DNA from: Thelephora terrestris
Lineage: Eukaryota > Basidiomycota > Agaricomycetes > Thelephorales > Thelephoraceae
Assembly (NCBI GenBank): GCA_015956445.1
Contig: WIUZ02000007.1
Coordinates: forward strand, 868,001-932,000
Length of the DNA: 64,000 nt
Direction: 5' to 3'
The translations under genes and the position numbers were made by a program. Below the pieces are notes generated by a model. The model did not search any database. It was given only the letters and a program-made list of their open reading frames with translations, and was not told the DNA's origin. The stretch's first letter is position 1, and the number at the start of each line of letters is the position of its first letter. Shown here one piece after another: positions 1 to 22,125 of this stretch.

Positions 1-745
1 ATTTTTATAAAATATTTATCTATATTCTGGAATTTTTCATGATTTTTCCAGCCAGAAAAACAATTTTCTGGATATTTCTGGGAGTAATTTACCATTTTGG
101 GCACTTTCTAGACCTGTGGGAATTTTTTCGGTATTTTTTAAGATTTTTCTGGCATTTTTCCGATTTTTCTGGCATATAATTTCCTTTTTTGGTAATTTTT
201 GCCAAAATCATTTTTGAGTTGCTCATGTAAGCCATCAAAATTTCCTTTTTTGGAAACTCTTTCCCAAAAAGGAAATTTCCTTTTTCGGTAATTTTTGTGA
301 AAAGCATTTTTGAGCTGCTTATGTAAGCCATCAAAATTTCCTTTTTTGGTAATCCATCAAATATTTCCTAAAAAGGAATTTCCTTTTTAGGAAAGACCCC
401 TCCAAAAGCAATTTTGAGACGCTTATGTAAGCCATCAAAACTTTCCTTTTTTGGACGGTCACATGACCTGATTACATAAGCAACACCCACTTTTTTCAGT
501 CACATGACCTGCTTATGTCAGCCATCAAAATTTCCTCTTTGGGAAATTCAATGCCAAAATCATTTTCAAGTCGCTTATGTAAGCCATCAAAAATTTCCTT
601 TTTTAGTCAGTCACATGATCTGCTTACATCAGCAACTCCCACTTTTTTCAGTCACCTGACCTGCTTATATAAGCCATCAAAATTTCCTTTTTTGGAAAAA
701 TCACATGACTCACTTATATAAGCACACCCAGTCACTCGGTGCTAC
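1..745. repeat. AT-rich degenerate repeat field
   Basis: A very AT-rich stretch built from two recurring motifs. The first is an 'agccatcaaaatttcc' core followed by a T-run; it recurs near 232, 327, 430, 521, 582 and 671, usually preceded by ttatgtaa or a variant. The second is 'agtcacatgacctgctta' or a variant, near 467, 500, 607, 650 and 697. Spacing is irregular (about 60-105 bp), so this is a decayed satellite or the edge of a repeated element rather than a clean tandem array. The short reading frames here show no protein-like composition. Its composition differs sharply from the GC-richer DNA to the right. Confidence 0.7.
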
Positions 746-789
746 CACATTGTCGGCTCCTGCCTAATCAGGAGTACCGAGCAGCTGGT

Positions 790-852
790 ATTGCAACTGC
801 CACAGGCAGCATTACAACTGCCACAGGCAGCATTGCAACTGCCACAGGCAGC
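790..852. repeat. 21-bp tandem repeat, three copies
   Basis: Three consecutive 21-bp units start at 790, 811 and 832 and differ by one base (attg versus atta at the unit start). A truncated fourth unit follows at 853. Each unit contains the inverted repeat ctgcc-aca-ggcag, so every unit can form a 5-bp stem with a 3-nt loop. No gene overlaps it. Confidence 0.85.
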
Positions 853-1427
853 ATTGCAATGCCATTGAGCATTGTAATCGCTACGAGTTAAAGTATTACA
901 ATTTTACGAGATCTGGCAGTAAATTGTACACAATTATGATAAGGACTACTGATTGTAGGTCCTCTATCAAGGAACGATACGGTTTGCCGAAGTCCAATTC
1001 TATCTTCAAGCCAACATCGCAGGAATCACGGAAACCCTCTCCCTCTGTTTGCTCTATTCACCAGTGGACGAAACCGTGAGGCAAAAATCACACAATGCCC
1101 TCAACGTATGTAGATACGAAGGTCAAAATAATTTAGTAATCATTCGGGTAGATACCATTCTTTCAGTCGTAGCAATGGTGCCGTTCGGGGAGCAGAATGA
1201 CCAGCCTCGTACTTTTTTTTTGGTAGAAAAGTTTGCGTTAGGTGTAATTGATACGGGCAACGCTTAAGATGGGTAATAATAGAAGCACGCCACACGAATA
1301 TATTGATCGAAGTCGATGTACCTCGCACCGGATAGATAAGATTAACGTGGCCGCTCTCTGCCCCAACGCCTTTCATGTTTCCTTCTTTCCCCATCCTTTC
1401 TCTTTACCACCATCATCTCCACCTCAA
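853..1427. other. Non-coding stretch upstream of first gene
   Basis: No supportable gene. It follows the 21-bp repeats and lies 5' of the gene starting at 1,428, so it probably holds that gene's promoter. I see no clear TATA box. Confidence 0.4.
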
Positions 1428-4608: not shown

Positions 4609-7515
4609 ATGGCTCCAAAATCTCACCGATCGAAAAGGCGCGTTGGCGTTCTCCCGGAGTTGGCTGTGGCTATTGAAGCTTTGGGCGTTGCGAAGGATGC
4701 CTGTAGTGTTGCACCGGCCCAGTTTGCTTTATGTTCCGCTTACGACCTCCTGACTGTGATAAAAGTACGTTGCCTCCTGTTGCTGGTAAAGAGCTTCCAA
4801 TTCACGTTTTTCCAGGAAAACGGGGACAAAAAACAGGACTTTATCGATCTCGGAATCTGCTGCGCTGATGTGTGTGCAGCCCTCAACCGGGGGCTGGGCG
4901 GGAAAAGATCAGGCGAAATCAGCGAGTCAGTGTACGATGCCATCGAACAGCTGATAACGTGAGTTGAACCAACGATCCGCACGCTGAGCGGTCCACTTAC
5001 CAAGGTCTCAATCGCAGAATTATGGTCGAGATTCAGGGGGAGACCGTCAAGGAGGATGAACGAAGTTGGGTCTCCAAATTATTGGGTGCGAGGGGCGATA
5101 AGGATACAATTGCGGCCTGGAAGCAAGACCTCAATAGGGTCCTTCACGTATTCAACATGCGTTCTATCTGTTCTATGTGGCATTCGCCAATGACATCCTT
5201 TCAGACAGAGCTGGCAACTGTTACTCAAGTGGCGGTTGCGGATGTTGGAGAAGTGCCTCCCCCTGCGCCAAGGGCCTGTTTCGGACGCGGAGAGCTGATT
5301 GGGGAGGTCGTCCGACGCGCTGAAAATTTGGAATCCATCGCTCTCATCGGCGCAGGGGGGATTGGGAAATCGACAATCGCCCTTGCTGTCCTCCACGACG
5401 ATCGCATCAAGCAACAATTTGGCAGTAGCCGTCGATTCATTGGTTGCGATCAGTTTCCAGCTTCTCTCCCCCATTTTCTCGCCCACCTCTCCAAGGTCAT
5501 CGGTGCGGGAGTCGAAAACCCTGAGGATTTAACACACCTACAGCGGTTCCTTACCTCCAAGGAGATGCTGATAATTCTCGACGGCGCCGAGTCTATCTTA
5601 GACCCCAAAGGAACCGATGCTCGGGAGATTTACGACGCAGTGGATGAACTGTGTCAGTTCAAAACAATTTGTGTCTGCGTCGTCTCCCGTATCACAACGG
5701 TTCCTCAGTACCGCAACAGTCTGTACATCCCCACATTGTCGATGGAGGCCGCGCAGAATGTTTTCTACGGCATCTATGGTGACGGCACGCGATCCAGCAT
5801 CATCAATGATCTTCTCCAGCGCCTGGATTTCCACCCGCTTTCGATAACACTCCTCGCTACCACTGCATCCCAGAACGGGTGGGATTACGATTGACTGGCT
5901 GAAGAGTGGCGCATACAGCAAGCGCAGGGGCTCCGGACGCATTTCCACGATGACCTGGCCGCAACCATCGAATTATTGTTCGCTTCTCCCACGTTCTGCA
6001 ATCTCGGCCCGGACGCGCGAGAATTCCTCGAGGTGGTTGCTTCCTTCCCGCAAGGTGTGGATGAGAACAACCTCGACTTGCTTTTCCCCACTATCCCTGA
6101 CAACAAGAATCTGGTTGACAAGCTCTGTGATCTTTCTTTGGTGTACCGACGCATCGGCTTCATCAAAGTGTTGGCAGCACATGGAGATTATTTTTACCCC
6201 CGAGATCCAAGAACATCCCCACTCCTCTGTGCAACAACACATCACTACCTCACCCGACTGCTGGTTCGCCCCTCTTCTGACCCCACGGAAGCACGGTGGT
6301 TCAAGTCAGAGGACATAAACATTGAGCACCTGCTCCATATTGCCACATTCTTTCAAGAGGAGGTGCCTGGTGTCTGGGTTGCTTGTGCAAACTTCATGAG
6401 CCACCTCCGTTTTCACAGACCACGACAAACTGTGTTGGGGCGGAATATCGAAACACTTCCGGATGACCACCCTTCCAAGCCAGGATGCTTGTTTGAGCTC
6501 TCACGTCTCTACGAGTCGATTGGAAATTACGCAGAAGCAAAACGGCTTCTCACTCATACCTTGACACTTTGGAGACAGCGGGCAGATGACTCTCAGGTGG
6601 CTCAAACGTTAAGTTTCCTAGCTCATGTAAATCAGGGGCTGGGACTATTCACGGAAGAAATTCAAGAGGCTAAAGAGGCAATGGAAATTTACGAACGGTT
6701 CGGGGACAGAGTGGGGCAAGCAGATTGTTTGCATAACCTCGCGTTGTCACTGCTTGGAGACAATCAACTCGATGACGCAGAGGGTTACGCAATACGCATG
6801 ATCAATTTCCTCTCGGAGAAAGGTGAAGAATATCTGCTCTGCAAATCTCATCGCACTTTAGGCATCATATACGATTCCAAAGGAGTCAACGAGAAAGCCA
6901 TTCACCAGTTCAAGACAGCCTTCAGAATCGCGTCCCCTTTCAGTTGGCAAGATCAACTATTCGGGGTTCATTACACACTGGCACTGCTATTATGTGCCGA
7001 AGGCGAGCTCGGCGATGCAAACACCCACATTGAACAAGCTAGATCACACACGGTTGATGATGCACACAAGCTAGCTCGTGCGATGAACGTGCAGGCTTGG
7101 ATCTACTATCAGGAACACAGACTAGAACATGCGAAGTTCAAGGCTTTGCGTGCGGTCGTGATCTATGAGAAGCTTGGGTCAACACAGGATGCAGGGGCTT
7201 GTGGAGAACTCCTCCTCATGATTGAACGAGCGATGGAAAGGCGGTGTATCTCAGATACTGGCAGTGAGTTTTCTGGTATTGATGCCACCCCCCCACTCCT
7301 GCTAACTCTGTCCTATTCTAGCATGTGGTACATTATTCACCACCTCCACCAAAAACTCTCAAGGCACTGGTATTGGAGGATCTTGGAGGATGTCGTATAT
7401 GCACGTTGTTCTAGGCATTATTGCTCTATTGTACGTTGGTGGTATGCATTGTGTATAGTATTTTCTGACCACACCTTTCTGTAGGCTCTTCAACACTCTT
7501 CCCTTTGGATACTAG
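4609..7515 (+). CDS. NB-ARC/TPR NLR with C-terminal membrane helix; one in-frame stop
   Basis: Fungal NLR-type receptor of about 890 codons. Exons begin at 4609, 4816, 5018 and 7322, with a last short exon after an intron near 7,430. A 57-nt segment near 5,150-5,207 may be a further in-frame intron. Order of parts: a helical N-terminal domain (residues 1-200); NB-ARC with P-loop LIGAGGIGKSTIAL (about 209), Walker B MLIILDGAES (about 284), a VVSR sensor and FHPLSI in place of the usual GLPL; TPR repeats (about 580-830); then a Gly/Ser/Thr-rich linker. Joining the exons at 7263/7322 and across the last intron gives a hydrophobic end (MHVVLGIIALLLF then NTLPFGY, stop at 7513-7515), a likely membrane anchor. 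An in-frame TGA at 5892-5894 (WDYD-stop-LAEEWR) interrupts it; the frame continues unchanged on both sides. A CGA-to-TGA change would explain it. As it stands it is a recent pseudogene or a strain-specific null. Transcription unknown. Confidence 0.85.
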
Positions 7516-8660: not shown

Positions 8661-11600
8661 TTAGTCACTATCTGTGGAGGGCATACCCAAAGTCCTGTAG
8701 AGATTACTGATAACAATCAGATGACCAATGAGATCACTGCAGTGTGCAGCAATGTCAAGTAAAGCGTTGCCATGGGTTGACGGCCAGGGCTGGTGTGGAG
8801 TTAGTGCCAAAAAAATGTGACAAAACTGCCATTCTGTCCACACCTTCTTCAGCCATTTTGTGGTTGTGTCCATTACCCGACAGCCGCTGGGCAGATCCCC
8901 AAGGGCCTTCAGCACCGCCAGCCAGAAGATAAATTTCCCATCCAAAAAATCAAACAGGGTTGACAACACTTCTGGGGTTGGGTCCTCCATCAAGACAAGG
9001 TGCTTGTGCCATGATCCACAGGCATATCGCAATGCACTACAGATACCCTCTGTCTCAATCTTTGGTAAATCTGTCACCTTGTAAATGAGGCCTGGGTCAG
9101 GGAGTGGGGGCTGGTCCTTCAGTGCCCTCCCAATGGTTTCGAGGCAGCACAAGAAAATTTTGATGTGACAGTCCGGGGATATGTAGAACCGATTGTCGGT
9201 GCAACGTTTCCAATCTGTTATGAAATCGGGAAAGGACTTGTGAAATGGTTGAACAGGTTCGTTGGGGTCCAAAGAGAGCACCAGGAGTGACCGGGTTAGT
9301 TCAAGGACAAGCCGGACTCGGTGATAGCCAAGGCCCATTAGGGTGGCAATTGTGGAGGGAGAGAGAGGATTTGTTGCAAGGACCACACAGCTGAGGATGG
9401 AACGGATGATGTTATCATCTTCAGCTTTGTTGTCTTGGAAGGACGTGTGAAGAATTGACAAGTAGAGGGTATCGAGGGTGTTGTATACCTTTAACTTTGC
9501 CTCTCCTTCGCATGATGTGCTCTCCGGAGATTCCATAAGCGTGTCAAGTTGACCCCATGGGACATCAAGGCGGCGACTGAGAACGTTGACAGTTGCGACA
9601 GCGTGTATGAAGAAGCCGGCTGCTCTTCGACACAACCAGTCGAGTTGTTCATCTGTTGGCCAACCCTGCTTGCCGCCATGGTGCTGTGCAAGTTTCGACA
9701 GTTCGCTCATGAAAAAGCGACGGATGTCCTGGTTGATGGTGTGGGCTTCGACCTCGTGAAGGATAAAGACATCTGTTAGATCCTGCAGCGGACCGTGGAA
9801 TCCAGTCGTAATGTGGGTCTCTGGTCGGCTGGTGATGAAGATTTTGAGCTTGGGAATGCCTTGAACATACTTTCCCAGCAAGGGGAGGATGGTGGATTCT
9901 AGACCTTCGTCCTGGCACTCGTCGAGGGCATCAATCACAATTGTGGTTGCAATACCGGTGGACCAGAGGGGTTCGACTATAAACTTTGCAATCTGGTCTT
10001 GAAGCGGATGGTACGCAATGTCTGGATTGGATTGGAGGAGATGAATGAGCAAGGACCGAATTTCTGGGTATCGTTATGCAAGCTGGAATGCCAGTGTGGG
10101 GAATATGAGCTGTAAATTGCTGCGATCATTGGAGCCTCTCAAGCAGAAAAAAGAGGCGCCCAAACGACCATCAGCGAACAGCCTCTCTGCAATGGTTTGC
10201 GCTATCGTGGTCTTTCCCGTCCCTGCGAGCCCATGGAGCCAGAAGATGGGAGACTGTTTGAAATCATCGGACCACTGCTCGACCTTATCTAGCACACTCT
10301 CCCGTGTCCCCTTCAGACAACCACTCCGGAGCCCATGCTGGTACCCAGCTCCGTGAGCACGAGGACAGGTGTTCAATACCAGCCATTCAGCTATTGAGTA
10401 ATCCGTTAGTGTGTGTCAAAGCAATTAGGATTATCCCGACTTTTGTCCTGAGAAAGCCGGTTAAAGTTCGATGTACAGTCCAATGTGGTTTTCAGTGACT
10501 TACAATCAGTTCACAGTTCTGGTCGTACAAGACTTTCTGTTGATGAAACTGCAGGCTACCTTAGCCCGGCATCTTGGGGGTAATTGGAAGATTAAGGCTG
10601 ACTTGGTACTCAATAATGGCGTCCCTGGCGTCCCCCGCAAGCCCACATATGGCCTCCATATATTTGTGGTTTTCTTGAGAACCAGTCGCACTGAAACTTT
10701 GAGATAGGGACTGTAACCGGACTTCGATTCCTTCAATGGCTCTGAGAAGCTGAGGGTCAGGATGCACGCTGGCACACAATCCATCAAGGGTACGTACTCA
10801 AACAGGATTTTCCGCTGCTCGGGTTTGCCTTCATCTCCAACGGCGCTACCCTCCACTTTCAACCTACCCAACCACGATAAGGTGGACTGTATCTTTTCCT
10901 TTACTCCCGGTACCCCCTATCAATAGATCAGTAAATGTTCCCATGGTGCATGTTGCTCTACCTTGTGAATTCTTAAAAACGCCTCGAAAGAGGTCTATGG
11001 TAAAGCCCTTCAGCTCAGACGATGAAGTCAGTGGTAGGAAGCTTACAGCCAGCTGGCAAAGTTGAGTTCCTATGGATTGTTGTTGAGATAACTACCCAAA
11101 AGACATCAGCTCAACCCGGCTTGTGTTTATGATTAATAAATGTACCAACCTGGTAGATGAGGATTGCGTGCTGAAGTTCTTCGGCGAACTTGACAATCGC
11201 ACCGGAATCCTGCTTTTTGTCGAGGAACCGATCCCATACCCCTTTCTCAGATAGCACCTGGGCTTGTTTCAAGATATTTTCTAAGGATCTACGGTGGGTA
11301 AGCCCGAGTTAGCAGGACAACAGAGACATAACGCCAACCGTTCAAGCTGTTCACGCCTCTCTTTCTCCTCGAGATTGACGTCGGGGCCTGTTGCCTTCAC
11401 GATGATATCCAACCTGTTGAGCCATGGGATAAGGGCCCCGAGCTTTTCTTCGACATCTTTGGTTTCCTAGGGTGGAGACATGACACATCAGCGAAATCAT
11501 GGTCAAATCGGCGAGGACGCACTTCGTAGTGCTTTCTGAACGCATCGATGGCATTCAAACAGGATTTGAGGGGCGGGAAAGCGTCGGCCGATTCTTTCGC

Positions 11601-12080: not shown

Positions 12081-12630
12081 TCCCAATCAAACTCCCCAAG
12101 GCCGCTGGAGTTGTGCCGGTGGCTTCAAAGTTTCAGCAACCGAAAGGCGAGATGGCATCATCCCAAAATCGGATGCAGCCATCCAATTTTCAAGCGTTGC
12201 CTGTTGTGTTGCACCAGCCCAGATCACTCTAGACTTTGCTTGTGCCCTCCCGACTATAGTAATCAATGTACCCTCCCTTCTCTTCAATAGAGAGCCCCCA
12301 GTTAACGTTTATTCAGGTAACCGTGTGCAACAGACAGGGCTTTGTCAGTCGCGGACTGTTCTGCGCTCACGTGTGCGAAGCCCTCGACCGGGCTCCGACG
12401 GTGGGACTAGGTCAACCGAACTCAGCGAGTCGATGCATGAGGCCATCGAGCAGCTGATGACATAAGCCAGTGAACCAGCGATATGCACGCTGAGCGGTCC
12501 GCTCACCAAGGTCCCAATCATATTGCAATGGATGAGACCCATGGAAAGGTCGCCAATTCGATTGTCCCTCACTCAACGAGACTTTCACTCCAGCAGCCGC
12601 GTTGCTTGGGATCATCTGGATATAGATAGA
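12081..12630 (+). pseudogene. Relic of an NLR N-terminal region
   Basis: Degraded copy of the 5' part of an NLR like the gene at 4,609. Recognisable pieces, in the same order and with the same intron positions: ACCVAPAQITLDFA (compare DACSVAPAQFALCSA), then after a 60-bp intron-like gap LFCAHVCEALDR (compare GICCADVCAALNR), then the nucleotide stretch encoding MHEAIEQLMT (compare VYDAIEQLIT). The downstream intron sequence (acgctgagcggtcc near 12,487) also matches the one at 4,981. The ATP-binding domain is absent. It lies on the plus strand, convergent with the zinc-finger/RING gene copy A. Confidence 0.7.
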
Positions 12631-12950: not shown

Positions 12951-15900
12951 TCACGTCGGTACTAGATCTAGTTTGAACAAACAATAAAGAACCAGAGCAT
13001 CTTTGCAGACTGGGCACTTCGACGTCTCCAAAACCTCTGCGACTATACACCTCCAGGTTGATGACCGGGTCAGCATTGTCCCCAAAAAAGGGCGGGTGAA
13101 AATCCACTTACTCGTAGCAGAACAAGTGGCCACAGCTTGTCGCGGTCAGAATTGAGGTTGGCGTCGGACCTGAGAAACAGATTCTACACCCAAAAAATAC
13201 CTCTGGCGAACCCGGTTTGGATCTTTTTGATCTGCCGGCCTGCAACGAATCATCATCGTGGGATAGGTCGCCTAACCACGGGAGCGGTCAGGTTCGAATA
13301 ATGATGGTCATCGCAGCGAACGAACCTTGTTTCGTATCTCGTTCCGCATTTCGCGGGTTAGGGGATGTAGAGGTTGGGGAATCGGATCTGGCGTCTTCGT
13401 ACTGTTCCGAGTTCATGGGTGACGGCGTTGTCCCATCGCGCACATTCTGCGTTCGGACGTTCGACTCGTCCCGCGAATGATCAGTCCTAGTGGCATCACT
13501 CCTTAAACCGAAAGTTAAATAAAATAGAATGAGAGTAAATAGAATGAGAGTCTCGGCGTTCTACATACAGGGTGAGGCTATCCCGTTCCCCGAGTTTAGA
13601 AACACGAGGTGGGTCTGTGATGTGTTGACCATTCTCCTGGCACAGGTTAGGTTAGCGCTGAAGAATCCTTGATCGAGAAGATGGCCTTACGGCTCCTACT
13701 GAACGTGGTGGGAGCATATCCACGTTACAGTCCTCTTCAGGCCTGTCAGTGCGGACAGGGGATACCGTCATCGCGGGAGACCAAACACCCGAAGCGGTCT
13801 CATAGGCCACTCCGTCCCAGCGCTGCTGTGGGTAGATCCCGACGAGAAGGTTCGGGGTTGGTCCATTAGATGACGAGGGGCCACGCTCATCAAAGGGTGC
13901 GGTTTGATTTTCTAAGTTCAGCTTGGCGTGATGAACGGGTCGCGATTCGGCCTAACGATTGCCGCTCGGTCCCTGACATGGAACAATATGTGCTCAAAGC
14001 ACGCACCTTATCAACAAATGTGAACGAGGTGTTCTGGTCTCGGTTGACGTTCGGCAACAACACCTCCGAAGGTGGGTTACTGATAAGGGAATCTTCTAAA
14101 TTGGGAGGGGCGGGGTGAGGCTGCACAAATCGGGTTACTATGCTTTGGGCCTTGAACCGCATATGAGATTTCTTTCCCTGTTACCCATACGTCCCGTACC
14201 TTGGTGTTGGTATCATAAATGGCACCACGGTATTTGTCACCGATCTTCCCTGAGTAGAATCGTTGGGGCTCAGGGTCGCCACGAATCAAACGGAAAGGCT
14301 TACCCTCGTTTGTATGGATTGCAACCTCCTTTCCCTTGGTGTTCGTGATCTTACCTGACTGAGCACTAGCCGCATGAACCGCATTGAAATGCTACAAATT
14401 TGTAAATGGATGAGAATGTGACAAGTCTCCAGAACACGAACCGTGTGCCAGGCGGTTCCATCCTCAAACGGAGGCAGCGTAGGACATTTCGTACACTTCC
14501 AGCTGTGAAATGCTATTTTATGCTAGTTTCCAGTTAGTTGTGTTGGTGACGTTGCGGCAAGAGAAATTACAAACCTGCTTCAGGTCTTTTGGGGACGTGA
14601 AACGGAAGAGACAGTGCTCGCATGTCATCGTTTCCTTGAAGGAAGATTTATGGTCCTCGCTGACGTGCTAGAAACAAAGGTCAAACTTAACATCCGCCCA
14701 GCATCGCTAGATTATATGGAGAACCTGGTTCACCGCTTCCTGCGTCCCAAATTCCTCCGGACATTTAGGGCATAGGTAGGTTTTGTGCTCGTTCTCTTCA
14801 TGCTGTCCGAGGTTACTAACACTGCACCACCCCAAGTTGTAGAGTGGTGTACGTACAAATCGAAGTGCTGCAGCCGACACGAATTTCCTGGCACATTTCG
14901 GGCAGGGGAGATTTTGGTTCATCTCATAATGCTATACAGGCCGTCAGATTTCATCGACCTTAGAGCGTGATGATGGGGGGTCGCACTTTGTTACCTTTCC
15001 CTTCCGTTGCGGAGGTCTCGGGAAGATAGATACGTCGAAAGCCATGGTAAGCTTCGCGATGCTTTGATGATATTAGTGGGTGCGCTGGGCCGCCTTATTC
15101 ACAACACCAAGAAGCGAACCTGATGCGCCCCAAACGCTGTGGTGAAGTAACTGGAGCAGATACCGCACTTAAACTGGTGGTTAGCGTTGTAGTGCTGAGA
15201 TGCACGTCAGTACAAGCTCGGTGAATGGGGAGCAAGAAGTGACCTGGTCCATCATAGCCCGTGTAACGAACTCAGCACTACACTCGGAACATCTGAACTG
15301 GTGCTTCGAATCAGAATGCTTAGTGGCCGTTAGGGGGGTTCATTGTTCGCGAGAGGGATCAAGAACCTGCTCCATCGATTGTTTCCTCCTGACTTCACCC
15401 CACTCGTGCCACTCCAATATACCATGTTTCTCATAGCAATGCTAAAGGCAAACATGAAAAACACGTCACGATGGAACAGAAACAAGATATGCACCTTGTC
15501 CAACTTGACCTGCGTCGGGAATTCACCACCACAATCAGAGCATCCAAAGCAGTGGTTTGTGTAGTAGTGCTGGGAGGGCGTCAGGAGGTAGGGGCCAAAC
15601 TCAGGAATGGGTTCGGACCTGAGCCATTGCTTCTTCGGTCCCGAATCCGCAATCACATTCGGAGCATTCAAGAGTGCGATGATTTGTTTCGTAGTGCTAG
15701 AGGAGCATGTAAGGATGTGATCCAGAACCATTAGGGGGAAGAAAACCTGATCTGCTTCAGCCCATGTCATGAACTCACGATCACACACTGGGCATATGAA
15801 ACCATGTTCTGCGTCATAGTGCTGAATAGCCTTAAGCAGGTGTCCAATGAGTAAAAGGATGAATTGAACCTGATTCATCGCCTTCAACGTCCCGAATTCC

Positions 15901-17103
15901 CCATAACATTCGGGACAAGTTACCCAACGGTGGACTGCACTGTGGTGCTGAACGAATTTCACGTTAGCAGGTGACTGATGAGGGGAAGGATGAATATGAA
16001 CCCAATTCATCAATTCCGTTGTACCGAATCTCCAATCGCATTCTGGGCAATTCTCCAGATTGTGGCCCGTATCGTAGTGCTGAACAGTTTTGAGCAGGTA
16101 ACAAATGAGGGGCAAGATGAGTACGAACCTCATTCGCTGCAGCCCGTGTCATGAACTCGCGATCGCACACTGGGCATATAGTACCGTGTTCTGCGTCATA
16201 GTGCTGGACAGCCTTGAGCAGGTCGCCAATGAGTGAAAGGATGAGTTGAACCTGGTTCATCGCCTTCAACGTCCCGAATTCCCCGTAACATTCGGGACAA
16301 TTTACCCAACGGTGGACCTCACCGTGGTGCTGATCAACCTTGAGCAGGTGACCAATGAGGGAAAGGGCAACTGCGAACCTGGTCCACCACCTCCCGTGCC
16401 ATAGCACTAAAATTGCATTCGGGACAATCTACCCAGCTGTGAGTTGCATCGAAGTGCTGGACAGCTCTTAAGCAGGTGACAAGCGAGGGGAAAGATGAGT
16501 ACAAACCTGGTCCATCAACCTCCTTGTGCTGAATCTCTTATCGCATTGGGGACAATTGAGACAATTGTGGACCTCATCGTAGTGCTGAAAACCCTTAAGC
16601 GGGTGACACATGAGGGGAAGGACGGATATGAACCTGATTCATCGACTCCCGTGAGTCGAATTTACCACCACACTCGGGACAATCTACCCGGCGGTGGGCG
16701 GTAGCGTAGTGCTTGAAGATAAGACCGCATCAGCACCCAAAAGAGACATCGTCAAAACGGACGAACCTGAACTCGCTCGCTCTCCGTAGTGAAGGTGTAA
16801 TGACATCCTGAACATCGAAAGCGATGAATTGTGTTGCGGTGCTAGAGGAACTTCAGCGGAGGATTGTGGAACGGCAGGACGTGAATTGAAACCTGGTTGA
16901 TAGCATCCTTCGATCCAAATATGCGGCCGCACTCCGAGCAATGAACACTCTTACCCTTATGTTTCGCCTTGGCATGCTAATGTGATAAAATCAGCGAATC
17001 GAGACGCGGGATCGGATAAGGTTATGCACAGAATTCACCGCCTCCAGTGATCCAAAACAAGATGAGCAAGAGCTGCACTTCCAGGACTTTTGCTTTTTAG
17101 GCA
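12951..17103 (-). CDS. C2H2 zinc-finger array with C-terminal RING domain, copy A
   Basis: Large multi-exon gene. Exon 1 (MPKKQKSWKCSSCSSCFG) starts at 17,103. Then about 18 exons of roughly 80 nt recur about every 127 bp. Each starts with a His codon and ends mostly in Gln, following H-x4-H-x5-C-x2-C-x12, so each finger's Cys pair and His pair lie in neighbouring exons; the introns are phase 0. Clear examples: HHGEVHRWVNCPECYGEF (16,250-16,335) and HYDAEHGFICPVCDREF (15,750-15,834). After a non-finger segment and an acidic Ser/Pro linker comes a RING finger: CRIC, CGHLFCYE, CIVAEVLE, KCPVC, ending LYCLFKLDLVPT (12,951). RING domains usually give ubiquitin-ligase activity; the array would bind nucleic acid or protein. 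Some modules are degenerate (15,362-15,448; 14,990-15,065). A TAG at 13952-13954 replaces a Gln codon of copy B in the linker, so this copy may be inactive or use another splice form. Confidence 0.8.
15748..16335 (-). repeat. Internal exon-block duplication in copy A
   Basis: The two-exon block at 15,748-15,955 is nearly repeated at 16,125-16,335, with an offset of about 382 bp (three module lengths). Both blocks contain a GEFGTLKAMNQ exon and a neighbouring CPVCDREFMT exon. Intron sequences match as well, for example the gagtaaaaggatga and gagtgaaaggatga stretches near 15,850 and 16,230. This indicates a fairly recent unequal exchange inside the array. Confidence 0.75.
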
Positions 17104-17689
17104 TTTGGCTCGGTTGAGGTTCAAGCGGTTACAGGTATTCTTTTATGCACGAGGTTGGAGGGTTTGAAGTTTCGCTATGACAGATTCCCAAAAGTGTGGC
17201 GGGGGTGACGGTAGCTTGACCTCGTGGCCCGGGGGTGGGCGGCCGGGCCCACCACGAGTCAATTAAAAAAGACCCACCACGACTTGCGTAGACAATGAGA
17301 TCGGGAATCCAGGGAAGGCCTGTAATTGGAGTCCGGAACATCACAGGCACGTACGCGTCACACCGCGATATTCCTACAGAAGTTGGATGACACTCGGAAG
17401 TTAAGCTCGAGCTCGAATAATAGTACAACAAGAGGACACTGCTGCACGTGGGACATCTGGGAGTCGAATTTTCATGCTGCGTGATGCATCTGGCGAAGGG
17501 TAAGTCTAGCAGCCGCGTTGCTGAGTATTCTCTAGTCGTACTCACGGTAGAAAAAGATGACCGCACATCATGGCCGTCGGTCGTGCACCGATATCAACCG
17601 TTGGAGGTGCATCGCACATCCGGCATCGAAGAAAAAGGGGCACCAATGCAGCGGTTACCCTGCTAGCGGTACTGTTCACGCCTCGTAGG

Positions 17690-18068
17690 AGAAAGCTGGG
17701 CGTCCTGTTAGCTCAACAATTGACAAAAACGGCTCCGCCACGGCGGATTCACACAGACATCCGAATCGTAAGATCACACCCCTGGATTCGGCTGTGGGAT
17801 TCCTTCGACCTGACTGGTGGCGGAGAACTTGCGGTCTGCCAGGCAGAGCTTCGCTTTGTCAACGTCGTCGCCTCGCTCTGTCATGATGTCGAAGAATTTG
17901 ATGCCGCATCACACACGATCGATAAGTTCCTCAGGAGAAAGCCCAAGACTTTCTGCAGTTCTGCTCTACCATGGCGAGCTATATCGTTCCAAGGGGGAGA
18001 ACAGGAAGGCCATTGAATACTTCAAGACGGCCCTTGGAATCGCGTTCCCTCTCGCCGCCCAGAAATAA
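17690..18068 (+). pseudogene. Relic of NLR TPR region
   Basis: Plus-strand fragment whose frames read like the TPR part of the NLR at 4,609. ELAVCQAELRFVNVVASLCH is followed, in another frame, by LLYHGELYRSKGENRKAIEY and FKTALGIAFPLAAQ (compare EKAIHQFKTAFRIASPF in the intact-looking gene). The change of frame near 17,930 shows it is broken. No NB-ARC domain is nearby. It sits between the two zinc-finger/RING copies. Short matching anchors (ctccgacca near 18,266 and 22,135) suggest the fragment was inserted into, or lost from, one of the duplicated blocks. Confidence 0.6.
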
Positions 18069-18325
18069 GTAACGTTTACAACGCGGTCGCACCACCTCGT
18101 TTTGAACTAGACAAGAACTGCCCAAAGGCGTTGCAGAGAATTACACAAACTACATATCCTAGATGCAACCCCTATGTGGATGCACCATGACCAGATTTCT
18201 CTCAAGTTCTACCTCGGCTCGTTAGGGCACGAAACATCTGTCACGCCTGATGATGAAACCTCATAGCTCCGACCAATAGAATGTTCCCGAAGAAACCGTC
18301 TGAGTGCTTTGCCCATCTCCACGCG

Positions 18326-21300
18326 TCACGATGCCACATCCAGTTTCAACAAACAATAAAGAGCCAGAACATTTTTGCAGACAGGACACCTCGATGTCTT
18401 CAAAACCTCTGCGGCTATACACCTACACGTCGACAACTAAGTAAGCATCTCTTTGTCTCCCAAAAGTGGCAGGTGAGGATCCACTTACTCGTAGCAGAAC
18501 AAGTGTCCACAGTTTGTCGCCGTCAGTTTTGAGGCTGGCGTCGGGTCGGAGAGACAGATCCGACACTCAAAGTGTACCCCTGGCGAACACGGTTTCGGTG
18601 GTGACAGTCATCGTAAAACGCCTGGAACGAACCTTGCTTCGTATCATCTTGCGAGTTGAGGGATGAAGAGGTCCGGGAATCGGATCTGACCTCTTCATAC
18701 TGCTTCGAATTTGTGTTTGATGGCATTGCCCCACCAGGCTCGTTTTTTGTTCGGAAGCTTGGCTCCTTAAGAGAACTTGCGTTCCACTGGCACACACGGG
18801 TTAGCACTAAAGAACCTCCGATCAAGTAGGTGGCCTCGCAAGACCTACTGGACGTGATGAGAGCGTATCTATGTCACAGTCCTCTTCAGACTCGTCAGCG
18901 CCGATAGAGGACACCGTCATCGTGGGCGACCAAACATCTGAAGCGATCTCATAGACCACTCCATCCCGCCGTGGCTGTGGGTTGATTTCAACAAGAAGGC
19001 TCAGGGTCGGTCTGTCGGGTGGTAAGAGGTCAAATGGTGCGGCTTGATTTCCCGAGTATGCCGTGGTATGGCGAACGGGCTGCGGTTCGGCCTGATAATG
19101 GTCGCTCGGTCCCTGATATGGATCAAAGATCTTTGAAATAGGCTCACCTTGGGAGTCAAGGAACGTTGTTGGTCATTGATCTCTCCTGAATGGAATCATC
19201 AAGTCTTAAGGTCTCCACTAATACAATGGAAAGGCCTACCCTCGTTCGTAGGGATTGCAACTTCCTTTTCCTTTCCTCTTGTGTCCGTGGTCTCACTTGG
19301 CTGAGCACCAATAACTGCATGAACCGCGTTGAAATGCTACACACCCATCAACGAATGAGAATGAGACGAGTTTCCGGAATACGGACTATTTGCCAGGCGG
19401 TTCCATCCTCAAACGGAGGTAGCGCGGGACATTTTGTACATTTCCAGCTGTGAAATGCTATTTTATGCTATTTTCCAGTCACGACACTGACGCACAGCAA
19501 GATAAGGGGTGCCAAACCTGCTTAAGGTGCTTTAGGGACTTGAAAGAGGCGAGACAGTGCTCGCATGTTATGATTTCCTTGGGGGAAGGTTTGTGATCCT
19601 CGCCGACGTGCTGGAGGGAAGGATGGTCAAACTCAACATCCACTGAGAACCGCTAGACAATACGGGGAACCTGTTTCATCGCTGCCTCTGTCTCGAACTC
19701 CTCGAAACACTCAGGGCAAGGGAACGTTTTGTGCTCGTTTTCTTTGTGCTGTTCAAGAGCGTTAGCGTTGCAATGCCAAAGGCGATGCACCCACAAGTCG
19801 AAGTTCTCCGGTCGACCGAAATTTCTTGGCACATTTTGGGCAGGGGAAGTTGTGCTTCATCTCGTCATGCTAGTCAGGTTGTCACATTTCGTCGACTGAA
19901 GGGTGTGATGATGGGATCGCACTTTGCTCCTGTCTCCTTCTGTTGTGAAGATCTCAAAACAATGGACACAACGGAACTGATGGTAGGCTTCGTGATGCTT
20001 TGAGGACGTTAGCGAGTGTGTCCGGACCACCTCAGTAATAGTATCAAGAGGCAAACCTGATTCATGCCACCTTCCGTGGTGAAGTATTTAGAACAGACAA
20101 TGCATTCGAACTGATGGTTAGCATCGTGGTGCTGAGATACTTGTCAGTACAAGCTTAGGGCATGGGGGCGAGGAGTAAGTGACCTGGTCGACCAGGGCTT
20201 GTGTAACGAACTCGGCACTACACTCGGGACATTTGAAGCGGTGCTTCGCATCAAAGTGCTAAATGGCTGTCAGTGGGTTTCGTTGTTTACGGGAGGGGAT
20301 GAGAACCTGTTCCATCGCTGGCTTTGTCCTGAATTCACGGTCGCACTCAGAACACCCTATCATACGGTGTGCTTGGTCGTAATGCTCAAGACACGGCGCG
20401 TGAATACTCAAGTCATGATGCAATCAAGAAAATGATAAGCACCTCGTCTACCGCAGCCTGCTTCGTGAACTCCCCATTGCATTCCGCACATTTAAAGCGG
20501 TGTGTGGTGTCGTAGTGCTGGAGGGGCATGATGAGGTGGGCGCCAAGCTCAGGAATCGGTGCAGACCTGGCTCATCACTTCCTCGGTCAAGAATTCGCAG
20601 TGACATTCGGGGCATTCAAAAGTGCGGTGGTTTGCTTCGGAGTGCTAAAGGGGCATGTAAGGACATGATGCAGATCCGTTGGGTGGAAGTGAACCTGATT
20701 CATTCCAGCCCGCGTCGTGAACTCACGATCGCACACCGGGCATTTGAAGCTGTGTTCCGCATTATGATGCTGGATAGCTTTGAGCAGATGACCAATGAAA
20801 AGAAGGATGAACCAAACCTGATCCATCAACTCCTGCGTCCTGAACCTCCGATCGCATTCGGGACAATCTATCCAACGGTGGACCGCATCGTAGTGTTGAA
20901 CTGCCTGAAGCAGTGTCGTGTACTCCTGGTCACATAATGGGCATCCGAAACGGTGCTCCGCAGTATAATGCTGAACGGCCTTGAGCAAGTGGACCATGAG
21001 GGAAAGAATAGATACGGACCTGGTTCATTCCGGCCCTCGTCGTGAACTCACGATCACACACTGAACATTTGAAGCGGTGTTCTACATCGACGTGCTGAAC
21101 TATCCTCAGCAACCGACCGATGAGGGAAAGGATGAGTATGAACCTGATTCATCAACTCCCGTGTCCTGAATCTCCCATCGCATTCGGGACAATCTACCAA
21201 ACTGTGGACCGCATTGTAGTGCTTGAAGATATGACTACATCAGCACCTAGCAGACAGATCGTCAAACCGGGCAAACCTGAAGCCGGGCAATCTCCGTAGT

Positions 21301-21608
21301 AAATTTGACATCACATCCGGAACATCCAAAGCGATGTTTCGTGTTGCAGTGCTACGATAACTTCAGCGGAGGATCGTGAAATGGCAGGGGATGTAAACTG
21401 AGACCTGGTCCAGGGCACCCTTCGACCCAAAGTCGCGATTGCACTCCGAGCAGCGGAACTTATGTTTTGCCTGCATGTGCTGTTGCGGCGAAATTAGCGA
21501 ATCGGAACGTGGAAATCGGATAAGAGTATGCACAGAATTCAACACCCCCAACGATCCAAAAGAAGTTGAGCAAGCGCTGCACTTCCACGTCCCTTGATTT
21601 GCAGACAT
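18326..21608 (-). CDS. C2H2 zinc-finger array with C-terminal RING domain, copy B
   Basis: Paralogue of copy A. It starts MSANQGTWKCSACSTSFG at 21,608 and continues with about 15 finger exons of the same split design, e.g. HVDVEHRFKCSVCDREF (21,020-21,095) and HYDTTHRFKCAECNGEF (20,441-20,520). A TCEHCLASF module, the FHSWKCTKCP module and a linker exon follow. The RING end is clean: joining over a 54-nt intron gives DTKQGVHFECRICLSD, then CGHLFCYE, CIAAEVLK, RCPVC and LYCLLKLDVAS, stop at 18,326. Near 20,910 one finger has lost its 3' half and most of the following intron, fusing two modules in frame (QEYTTLLQAVQHYDAVH). The exon at about 19,180-19,336 contains two adjacent TGA codons (19,196-19,201) where copy A reads Gln-Arg. 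That exon starts and ends in phase 0, so skipping it would keep the frame. Inferred role: RING ubiquitin ligase with a finger-array recognition part. Confidence 0.78.
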
Positions 21609-22125
21609 CGGCTCGGTTGAGGGTCAGGTGGTGACAAGCGTCCTCGATGCGCAAAGTGAGAGTGTTCGAAGCCTCGTTGTGATAGATTTTCAAAAGTGTG
21701 GCGGGGGTGTGTGGCTTTGCCTCGTGGGGTGGGCCCACAGCGCGGTGGGCCACGTAAAATCCGGATGACGATCGAAGATTCAGGGAAAGCCTGAACATCA
21801 CGGGCACTCTACATCGTCACAATCTTAGAGATGGGTCCTAGGGTAACACTGGGAAATTGAGTCCGGATAAACGACACAACGAGACGGCACTGTCGCACAC
21901 GGGACATCTTGGAGTCGATATTCCGCCGTGTTGCACGAGCATCTGGCGGGGCGTGAATCTAGCAACCGCGTTGCTTGAGATTCTCTAGACGTGCTCGTGA
22001 CGGAAACGATATCCGTATATCGTGGCCGTTGGTCTCGTGTCAACGGTCGAAGGTGCATCCCACATCCTGCATTGAAGAGAAAGGAGCGGCAAGGCAGCGG
22101 TTATAGCCTCGTGGGAGAAAGCTAG

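What the first reader, a model, noticed from the sequence alone, without database searches (positions are those of the whole stretch)
12951..21608. Tandem genes for split-finger C2H2 arrays ending in a RING domain
Two neighbouring minus-strand genes encode about 15-18 C2H2 modules followed by a C-terminal RING. In both, each finger is cut at the same point: Cys pair at one exon's end, His pair at the next exon's start, with phase-0 introns on both sides, about 80-nt exons and a period near 127 bp. Such symmetric modules can be added, lost or skipped without changing frame. Array plus RING suggests a fast-changing recognition surface coupled to ubiquitin ligation, and the genes sit among NLR genes and relics. 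The exon pattern and RING residues are read directly; the function is inference.
Basis: partly seen in the sequence, partly recalled or inferred. Interest (0 to 1): 0.8.

Follow-up and report, generated by a model that had tools for sequence, protein, structure and literature searches.

The report
Split-finger exon arrays joined to RING
Two neighbouring fungus-like genes string together about twenty small zinc fingers, each built across two exons, in front of a RING domain that probably tags other proteins with ubiquitin, and finger number appears to change by copying exon-intron units in one zone of the array.

Summary
Gene A (21608-18326, minus, 702 aa) and gene B (17104-12951, minus, 884 aa) read as chains of mostly 75/78-nt phase-0 exons. 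Each exon starts with HxxxxH and ends after CxxC, so fingers straddle introns. A has 18 finger positions, B 21, followed by a linker and a C3HC4 RING. Thirty strict module exons lie in the region, none elsewhere in the window, none in 200 shuffles.

The same genome holds a sister cluster of five RING genes, two with the same array, and one array without a RING.

The inferred "fast-changing surface" is only partly supported. Across four paralogues, three N-terminal and eight C-terminal modules are constant; a middle zone varies (1, 2, 5 or 8 modules), and in A and B its exons were copied with their introns. Codons look constrained (dN/dS 0.23-0.51). Canonical DNA-contact positions -1 and 6 are conserved and linkers short, so a PRDM9/KRAB-like DNA reader is unlikely.

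Best reading: a birth-and-death family of RING E3 ligases with a modular finger arm. Splicing, activity and targets are untested.

The parts
18326..21608 (-). Gene A: 23 exons, 702 aa (hand model): 18 finger positions, linker, C-terminal RING
   Evidence: Pfam zf-C2H2_4 126 bits (cut-off 27), zf-RING_2 33.8 (27.3) on the first-pass 709-aa model
12951..17104 (-). Gene B: 29 exons, 884 aa (hand model): 21 finger positions, 3 without a full set of ligands in register, linker, C-terminal RING
   Evidence: Pfam zf-C2H2_4 96 bits, zf-RING_5 31.0 (27.9), zf-RING_2 27.8 (27.3) on the first-pass 870-aa model
19387..21608 (-). Gene A array exons 1-17 (split-finger modules)
14442..17104 (-). Gene B array exons 1-21 (split-finger modules)
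20695..21221 (-). Gene A expansion zone: five modules of types W-F-F-W-F (exons 4-7)
   Evidence: module tree; zone introns alike
15747..16711 (-). Gene B expansion zone: eight modules of types W-W-W-W-F-W-W-F (exons 4-11)
   Evidence: module tree; zone introns alike
20818..20970 (-). Gene A exon 6: fused double module with one unsplit finger, 18 nt resembling an intron tail read as coding
   Evidence: comparison with neighbouring introns
14987..15061 (-). Gene B module 17, cysteine pair lost, frame kept
15367..15441 (-). Gene B module 14, cysteine pair lost, frame kept
18326..18579 (-). Gene A RING (C3HC4) in two exons, 18579-18489 and 18422-18326, phase-2 intron, hydrophobic C-terminal tail
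12951..13271 (-). Gene B RING in two exons, 13271-13112 and 13050-12951; the first also encodes HDDD...RSKRSK
17411..17631 (-). Decayed RING relic upstream of gene B (P1/P2-type RING)
21976..22077 (-). Decayed RING relic upstream of gene A

Best explanation
Genes A and B belong to a small tandem family (birth and death) of RING-type E3 ubiquitin ligases. The N-terminal arm is a rod of closely packed C2H2 fingers that captures a partner, more likely a protein than a DNA site. The C-terminal RING with its conserved hydrophobic tail recruits an E2 and ubiquitinates the captured partner. Because every module exon begins with the His pair and ends with the Cys pair in phase 0, adding, losing or skipping any exon again closes every finger and keeps the frame. 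The arm's length therefore changes by duplication of exon-intron units, and this has happened in one middle zone while the flanking modules stayed constant. Shown here: exon anatomy, intact RING ligands, constant flanks, variable zone, copied introns, codon constraint. Inferred: one spliced transcript, E3 activity, protein targets, biological role.
For: Same split-module exons in five arrays. Three N-terminal and eight C-terminal modules in the same order in A, B, P3 and P4; five of these positions form supported four-gene clades (A10, A11, A13, A14, A15 groups). Zone modules form two supported clades, W (9 rows) and F (7 rows), with 5, 8, 1 and 2 members in A, B, P3 and P4. Zone introns are alike (45 pairs, mean identity 0.71, minimum 0.64), other introns are at shuffle level (156 pairs 0.54; shuffles 0.54), so A and B grew by copying DNA units including the intron. 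dN/dS of constant modules 0.23-0.51 in five gene pairs; RING 0.34 (0.15-0.68), linker 0.51 (0.33-0.80): the linker's frame is conserved, which supports joining fingers to RING. RING ligands complete in 6 of 7 family members, all with the same split position. Helix -1 and 6 conserved; linkers of 3-4 residues in 54 of 58 parsed modules. Best solved relative of the RING: RNF4.
Against: No transcript or activity data. Introns of A and B differ less (129 of 453 sites, 0.285) than synonymous sites (0.437), so measured against introns the constraint on codons (pN 0.202) is milder. Exon 1 of A and B gives dN/dS 1.23 on few sites, and the best conserved-looking linker exon has an interval reaching 1.05. 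Gene B has damaged fingers and P4's RING has lost a ligand, so part of the family may be decaying. Two members have a RING without the array and one has the array without a RING, so the pairing is not obligatory. The RNF4 score comes from a tandem-RING fusion chain; single RNF4 chains score only 9e-5.
Confidence: 0.55

Rival explanations
1. The array is a sequence-specific DNA-binding domain of KRAB-ZNF/PRDM9 type whose specificity evolves; the RING acts on chromatin proteins or regulates the factor's own turnover.
For: C2H2 spacing is canonical (C-x2-C-x12-H-x4-H); the closest solved chains to the fingers are DNA-binding arrays, designed Aart, CTCF and TFIIIA. Gene B and P5 keep a basic RSKRSK stretch that could be a nuclear signal.
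Against: Helix position -1 is Thr/Ser in 62 of 65 fingers and 6 is Gln in 43 of 65, so two of four recognition positions hardly vary; positions 2 and 3 do vary (mismatch 0.68 and 0.62 of 63 paralogue pairs) but not more than positions such as +1, 5 and 9 (0.62-0.65). Linkers of 3-4 residues instead of the seven of TGEKP-type linkers (seven is recalled). No within-gene zone pair above dN/dS 0.86 (18 of 20 measurable).
Confidence: 0.2
2. A decaying repeat family: tandem duplicates that once coded for a functional ligase and now drift, with gene A perhaps the only working copy.
For: Worn fingers in B, lost RING ligand in P4, two RING relics, RING-less array at C23. B-P4 dN/dS 0.51 is higher than A-P4 0.31.
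Against: Open frames over 702 and 884 codons with matching splice sites; dN/dS below 1 with intervals excluding 1 in all five constant-module comparisons; even the worn B modules keep length and frame.
Confidence: 0.2
3. The array binds RNA or ubiquitin rather than a variable protein partner (JAZ-like or UBZ-like fingers), with constant rather than changing targets.
For: zf-C2H2_jaz (dsRNA-binding) matches A at 95.7 bits; zf_UBZ appears weakly in P3 (18.2 bits, cut-off 25.6).
Against: Those matches fall below that of the general C2H2 model on the same fingers (zf-C2H2_4 126 bits in A, 118 in P3); the UBZ match is below its cut-off.
Confidence: 0.15

Closest known systems
RNF4-type and other C-terminal RING E3 ligases
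   Same: C3HC4 RING at the very C-terminus with a short hydrophobic tail; best PDB match of the RING
   Different: RNF4 has SUMO-interacting motifs and no finger array (recalled); SIMs were not tested here
ZNF598/Hel2 and the RNF114/125/138/166 group (RING plus C2H2)
   Same: RING and C2H2 fingers in one protein
   Different: Their RING is N-terminal and the fingers few (recalled); here the RING is C-terminal behind 18-21 finger positions
KRAB-ZNF and PRDM9 finger arrays
   Same: Tandem C2H2 fingers whose number changes by unit duplication in clustered genes
   Different: There the finger domain is described as one exon (PMC2443715, passages); here each finger is split between exons, linkers are short, and the zone pairs do not exceed dN/dS 0.86 against 2.7 for PRDM9 (PMC5120217, passages)
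RING-domain genes linked to complex multicellularity in Agaricomycetes
   Same: RING zinc-finger proteins are named among ubiquitination genes in orthogroups specific to complex multicellular fungi (PMC8893723, one passage)
   Different: That passage does not mention C2H2 arrays; whether the present genome belongs there was not established

Membership tests
RING-type E3 ubiquitin ligase | C3HC4 ligands with RING spacing | tested here: met
   8 of 8 ligands in A and B, 6 of 7 family members complete, P4 lacks the second Cys
RING-type E3 ubiquitin ligase | Profile match above curated cut-off | tested here: met
   A: zf-RING_2 33.8 (27.3), RING_5 31.2 (27.9), C3HC4 27.6 (21); B: RING_5 31.0, RING_2 27.8, C3HC4 25.9
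RING-type E3 ubiquitin ligase | E2-dependent ubiquitin transfer | not testable with these tools
   needs protein
C2H2 zinc-finger protein | C-x2-C-x12-H-x3-5-H repeats above profile cut-off | tested here: met
   65 of 72 fingers over five arrays have all ligands in register (P4 module 13 was left out, no partner exon set); Pfam 126 and 96 bits
KRAB-ZNF/PRDM9-type DNA reader | TGEKP-like seven-residue linkers | tested here: not met
   3 residues in 31 and 4 in 23 of 58 parsed modules
KRAB-ZNF/PRDM9-type DNA reader | Change concentrated at helix -1, 2, 3, 6 | tested here: not met
   mismatch 0.10, 0.68, 0.62, 0.35 of 63 pairs against 0.44-0.65 at other non-ligand positions apart from the core Phe (0.19)
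KRAB-ZNF/PRDM9-type DNA reader | dN/dS above 1 between finger copies | tested here: not met
   0.08-0.86 in 18 of 20 within-gene zone pairs, 2 saturated
ZNF598/Hel2; RNF125 group | N-terminal RING before fingers | tested here: not met
   RING is the last domain in A and B
RNF4-like SUMO-targeted ligase | SUMO-interacting motifs | not tested
   a hydrophobic LLVEI stretch in the linker of A was seen only
NLR | NB-ARC or NACHT domain in the gene | tested here: not met
   none among the Pfam families listed for A (25 of 26 shown) and B (16)

The most novel reading that the evidence does not exclude
An exon-coded accordion ligase: splitting each finger between exons makes every exon boundary compatible with every other, so DNA-level unit duplication and possibly exon skipping can lengthen, shorten or recombine the substrate arm (each new junction making a hybrid finger) while the RING and the flanking modules stay fixed; in strains and by splicing one gene could give a set of E3 ligases of different reach.
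Probability: 0.25. Interest if true: 0.8.

Novelty: new variant of a known kind. Interest (0 to 1): 0.52.

Why it matters
Ligases usually gain new targets by gene duplication and mutation. A family whose binding arm grows and shrinks by whole exon-intron units, with the cut placed so that any join closes the fingers, would give a simple, testable case of modular evolution of substrate recognition. It also shows a limit: the splice-donor codon CAG occupies helix position 6 of most fingers (44 of 70 module exons end in CAG), so exon architecture and finger chemistry constrain each other. And it warns annotators: a six-frame search with the Pfam C2H2 model saw only two matches in this window, because the introns cut the fingers.

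Tried and rejected
Rejected: a chance pattern; a DNA reader with a changing code as first choice; NLR membership; a general feature of the genome's C2H2 genes: of the 30 C2H2 loci returned with DNA out of 113 matches, 0 show split-module exons in the scan. First-pass models had introns of 22, 35 and 123 nt in the linkers; comparison with P5 gave better acceptors and introns of 46-82 nt. Searches with A and B proteins used the first-pass models or parts of them.\n\nLed nowhere: Rfam, 0 matches; Pfam on the A linker, 0 families; literature: ten searches brought no listed title or abstract describing split-finger arrays with RING; this is only the held open-access library and I read passages of five papers, none in full. 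The host species was not identified, and no other fungal genome could be searched, so the family's spread is unknown.\n\n
Full report
What is there. On the minus strand, gene A runs from 21608 to 18326 (23 exons, 702 aa) and gene B from 17104 to 12951 (29 exons, 884 aa) in hand-built models. Each array exon reads HxxxxH, a linker of three or four residues in most cases, CxxC and twelve more residues, then a phase-0 donor. A finger C-x2-C-x12-H-x4-H is therefore completed only across an intron that falls between helix residue 6 and the first His. Strict exons of this form number 30 in the region, none elsewhere in the window, none in 200 shuffles. Over five arrays of the genome 63 of 72 exons are 75 or 78 nt.\n\nIntactness. 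Counting fingers whose four ligands are in register: A 17 of 18, B 18 of 21, P3 11 of 12, P4 11 of 12 (its last module left out), Q 8 of 9, together 65 of 72. The exceptions in A and B include the atypical last module; B modules 14 and 17 have lost both cysteines while keeping length and frame. A exon 6 is a fusion: part of a module and most of an intron are gone, 18 nt resembling the tails of neighbouring introns are now coding, and the finger spacing came out right.\n\nRING. Both genes end in a C3HC4 RING split by a phase-2 intron and followed by a short hydrophobic tail. It passes several Pfam cut-offs. Its best solved relative is an RNF4 tandem-RING chain (8.3e-9), but single RNF4 chains score 9e-5, within a crowd of ordinary RINGs (91 matches, 60 shown).\n\nThe family in this genome. 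A RING search gave 17 matches, 13 of them in seven genes: A, B and five tandem genes at C34:1939-1950 kb, all on the minus strand. P3 and P4 carry the same split-module array (12 and 13 array exons); P5, whose RING exons are 87% and 78% identical to A's, keeps only a few finger-like exons; in P1 and P2 the scan found no split modules, only single unsplit fingers by eye. A protein search with A's array found a further array at C23:2201131-2200023, with nine module exons and a final half-module followed by a stop; no RING was found in the 3.4 kb read downstream. A P1-type RING query found decayed RINGs upstream of both A and B, in the place that P2 holds upstream of P3, so the duplicated unit was probably a RING gene plus an array gene. 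The A/B duplication is visible in DNA from about 22103 to 18338 against 17657 to 12966.\n\nWhere module number changes. In A, B, P3 and P4 the first three and a block of eight C-terminal modules come in the same order. In a DNA tree of 64 modules (first exons and the last two of A and B left out), five of the C-terminal positions form supported four-gene clades, while positions A9, A12 and others are unresolved for want of columns. Between them lie modules of two types, W and F, each a supported clade: five in A, eight in B, one in P3, two in P4. The introns behind these zone modules in A and B resemble each other (45 pairs, mean 0.71, minimum 0.64), whereas the remaining introns are at shuffle level within a gene (156 pairs 0.54, shuffles 0.54) though they resemble their counterparts in the other gene (mean 0.69 over 11). 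The zone therefore grew by copying exon plus intron.\n\nSelection. Nei-Gojobori dN/dS of constant modules: A-B 0.36 (0.27-0.48), A-P3 0.23, A-P4 0.31, P3-P4 0.36, B-P4 0.51; B-P3 was not computed. RING A-B 0.34 (0.15-0.68), linker 0.51 (0.33-0.80), one linker exon 0.60 (0.33-1.05). Against this: introns of A and B differ at 0.285 of aligned sites, less than synonymous sites (0.437), so the yardstick matters; exon 1 gives 1.23 on 16 synonymous sites. Within zones, 18 of 20 pairs give 0.08-0.86, two are saturated. Thus neither clear decay of A nor positive selection is shown.\n\nRecognition mode. Residue -1 is Thr/Ser in 62 of 65 intact fingers, residue 6 Gln in 43 of 65; 44 of 70 module exons end in CAG, which suits a splice donor (the last point recalled). 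Linkers have 3 or 4 residues in 54 of 58 parsed modules. These features speak against a DNA code reader and for a compact protein- or RNA-binding rod. The choice of protein partner is inference.\n\nSetting. NLR-type genes lie at 4968-7484 + and 8661-10073 - (with, 20 of the 126 listed ORFs were scanned). In the sister cluster 10 of 21 listed ORFs were scanned: a WD40 protein and a RING, no NLR domain. An immune role is thus possible but rests on neighbourhood at one locus only.\n\nLiterature. Passages seen: fungal C2H2 survey PMC12295980, repeat evolution PMC5120217, mammalian C2H2 genes PMC2443715, Agaricomycete development PMC8893723, fungal NLRs PMC12258605, which mentions NLRs with C-terminal zinc fingers repeated three times. 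None of these passages describes split-finger arrays with a RING; the ten searches of the held library are named in Tried and rejected.\n\nVerdict. The anatomy is real and unusual; the parts are known kinds. The most likely working is a RING ligase with a modular finger arm. The bold reading, an arm whose length is set by exon units and perhaps by splicing, is not excluded and is directly testable by cDNA and strain comparison.

Noticed in passing
window 17411-17631 and 21976-22077, minus: Two decayed RING relics upstream of genes B and A, matching the RING-only genes P1/P2 of the sister cluster.
   Followed up: partly
G000:C23:2201131-2200023, minus (in L059): Array of nine split-module exons without a RING in the 3.4 kb read behind it; two adjacent modules (6 and 7) are recent duplicates.
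   Followed up: partly
window 4698-5013 and 12198-12519: 72.5% identical DNA over 324 bases, suggesting a duplicated piece near the NLR-type gene and a relic close to gene B's end.
   Followed up: no
window 178-864: Tandem repeats with periods of 96, 152, 41 and 21 bp.
   Followed up: no
window about 17.95-18.06 kb, plus strand: A short reading frame between A and B that by eye resembles a TPR repeat; Pfam on the overlapping plus-strand ORF 17561-18013 found nothing.
   Followed up: partly
L055, gene P4, around C34:1942030: P4's RING has Tyr in place of the second zinc-binding Cys, so it may be inactive.
   Followed up: no
gene B 13271-13112 and gene P5: Both keep an HDDD...RSKRSK segment just before the RING that gene A lacks; a possible nuclear signal.
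   Followed up: no
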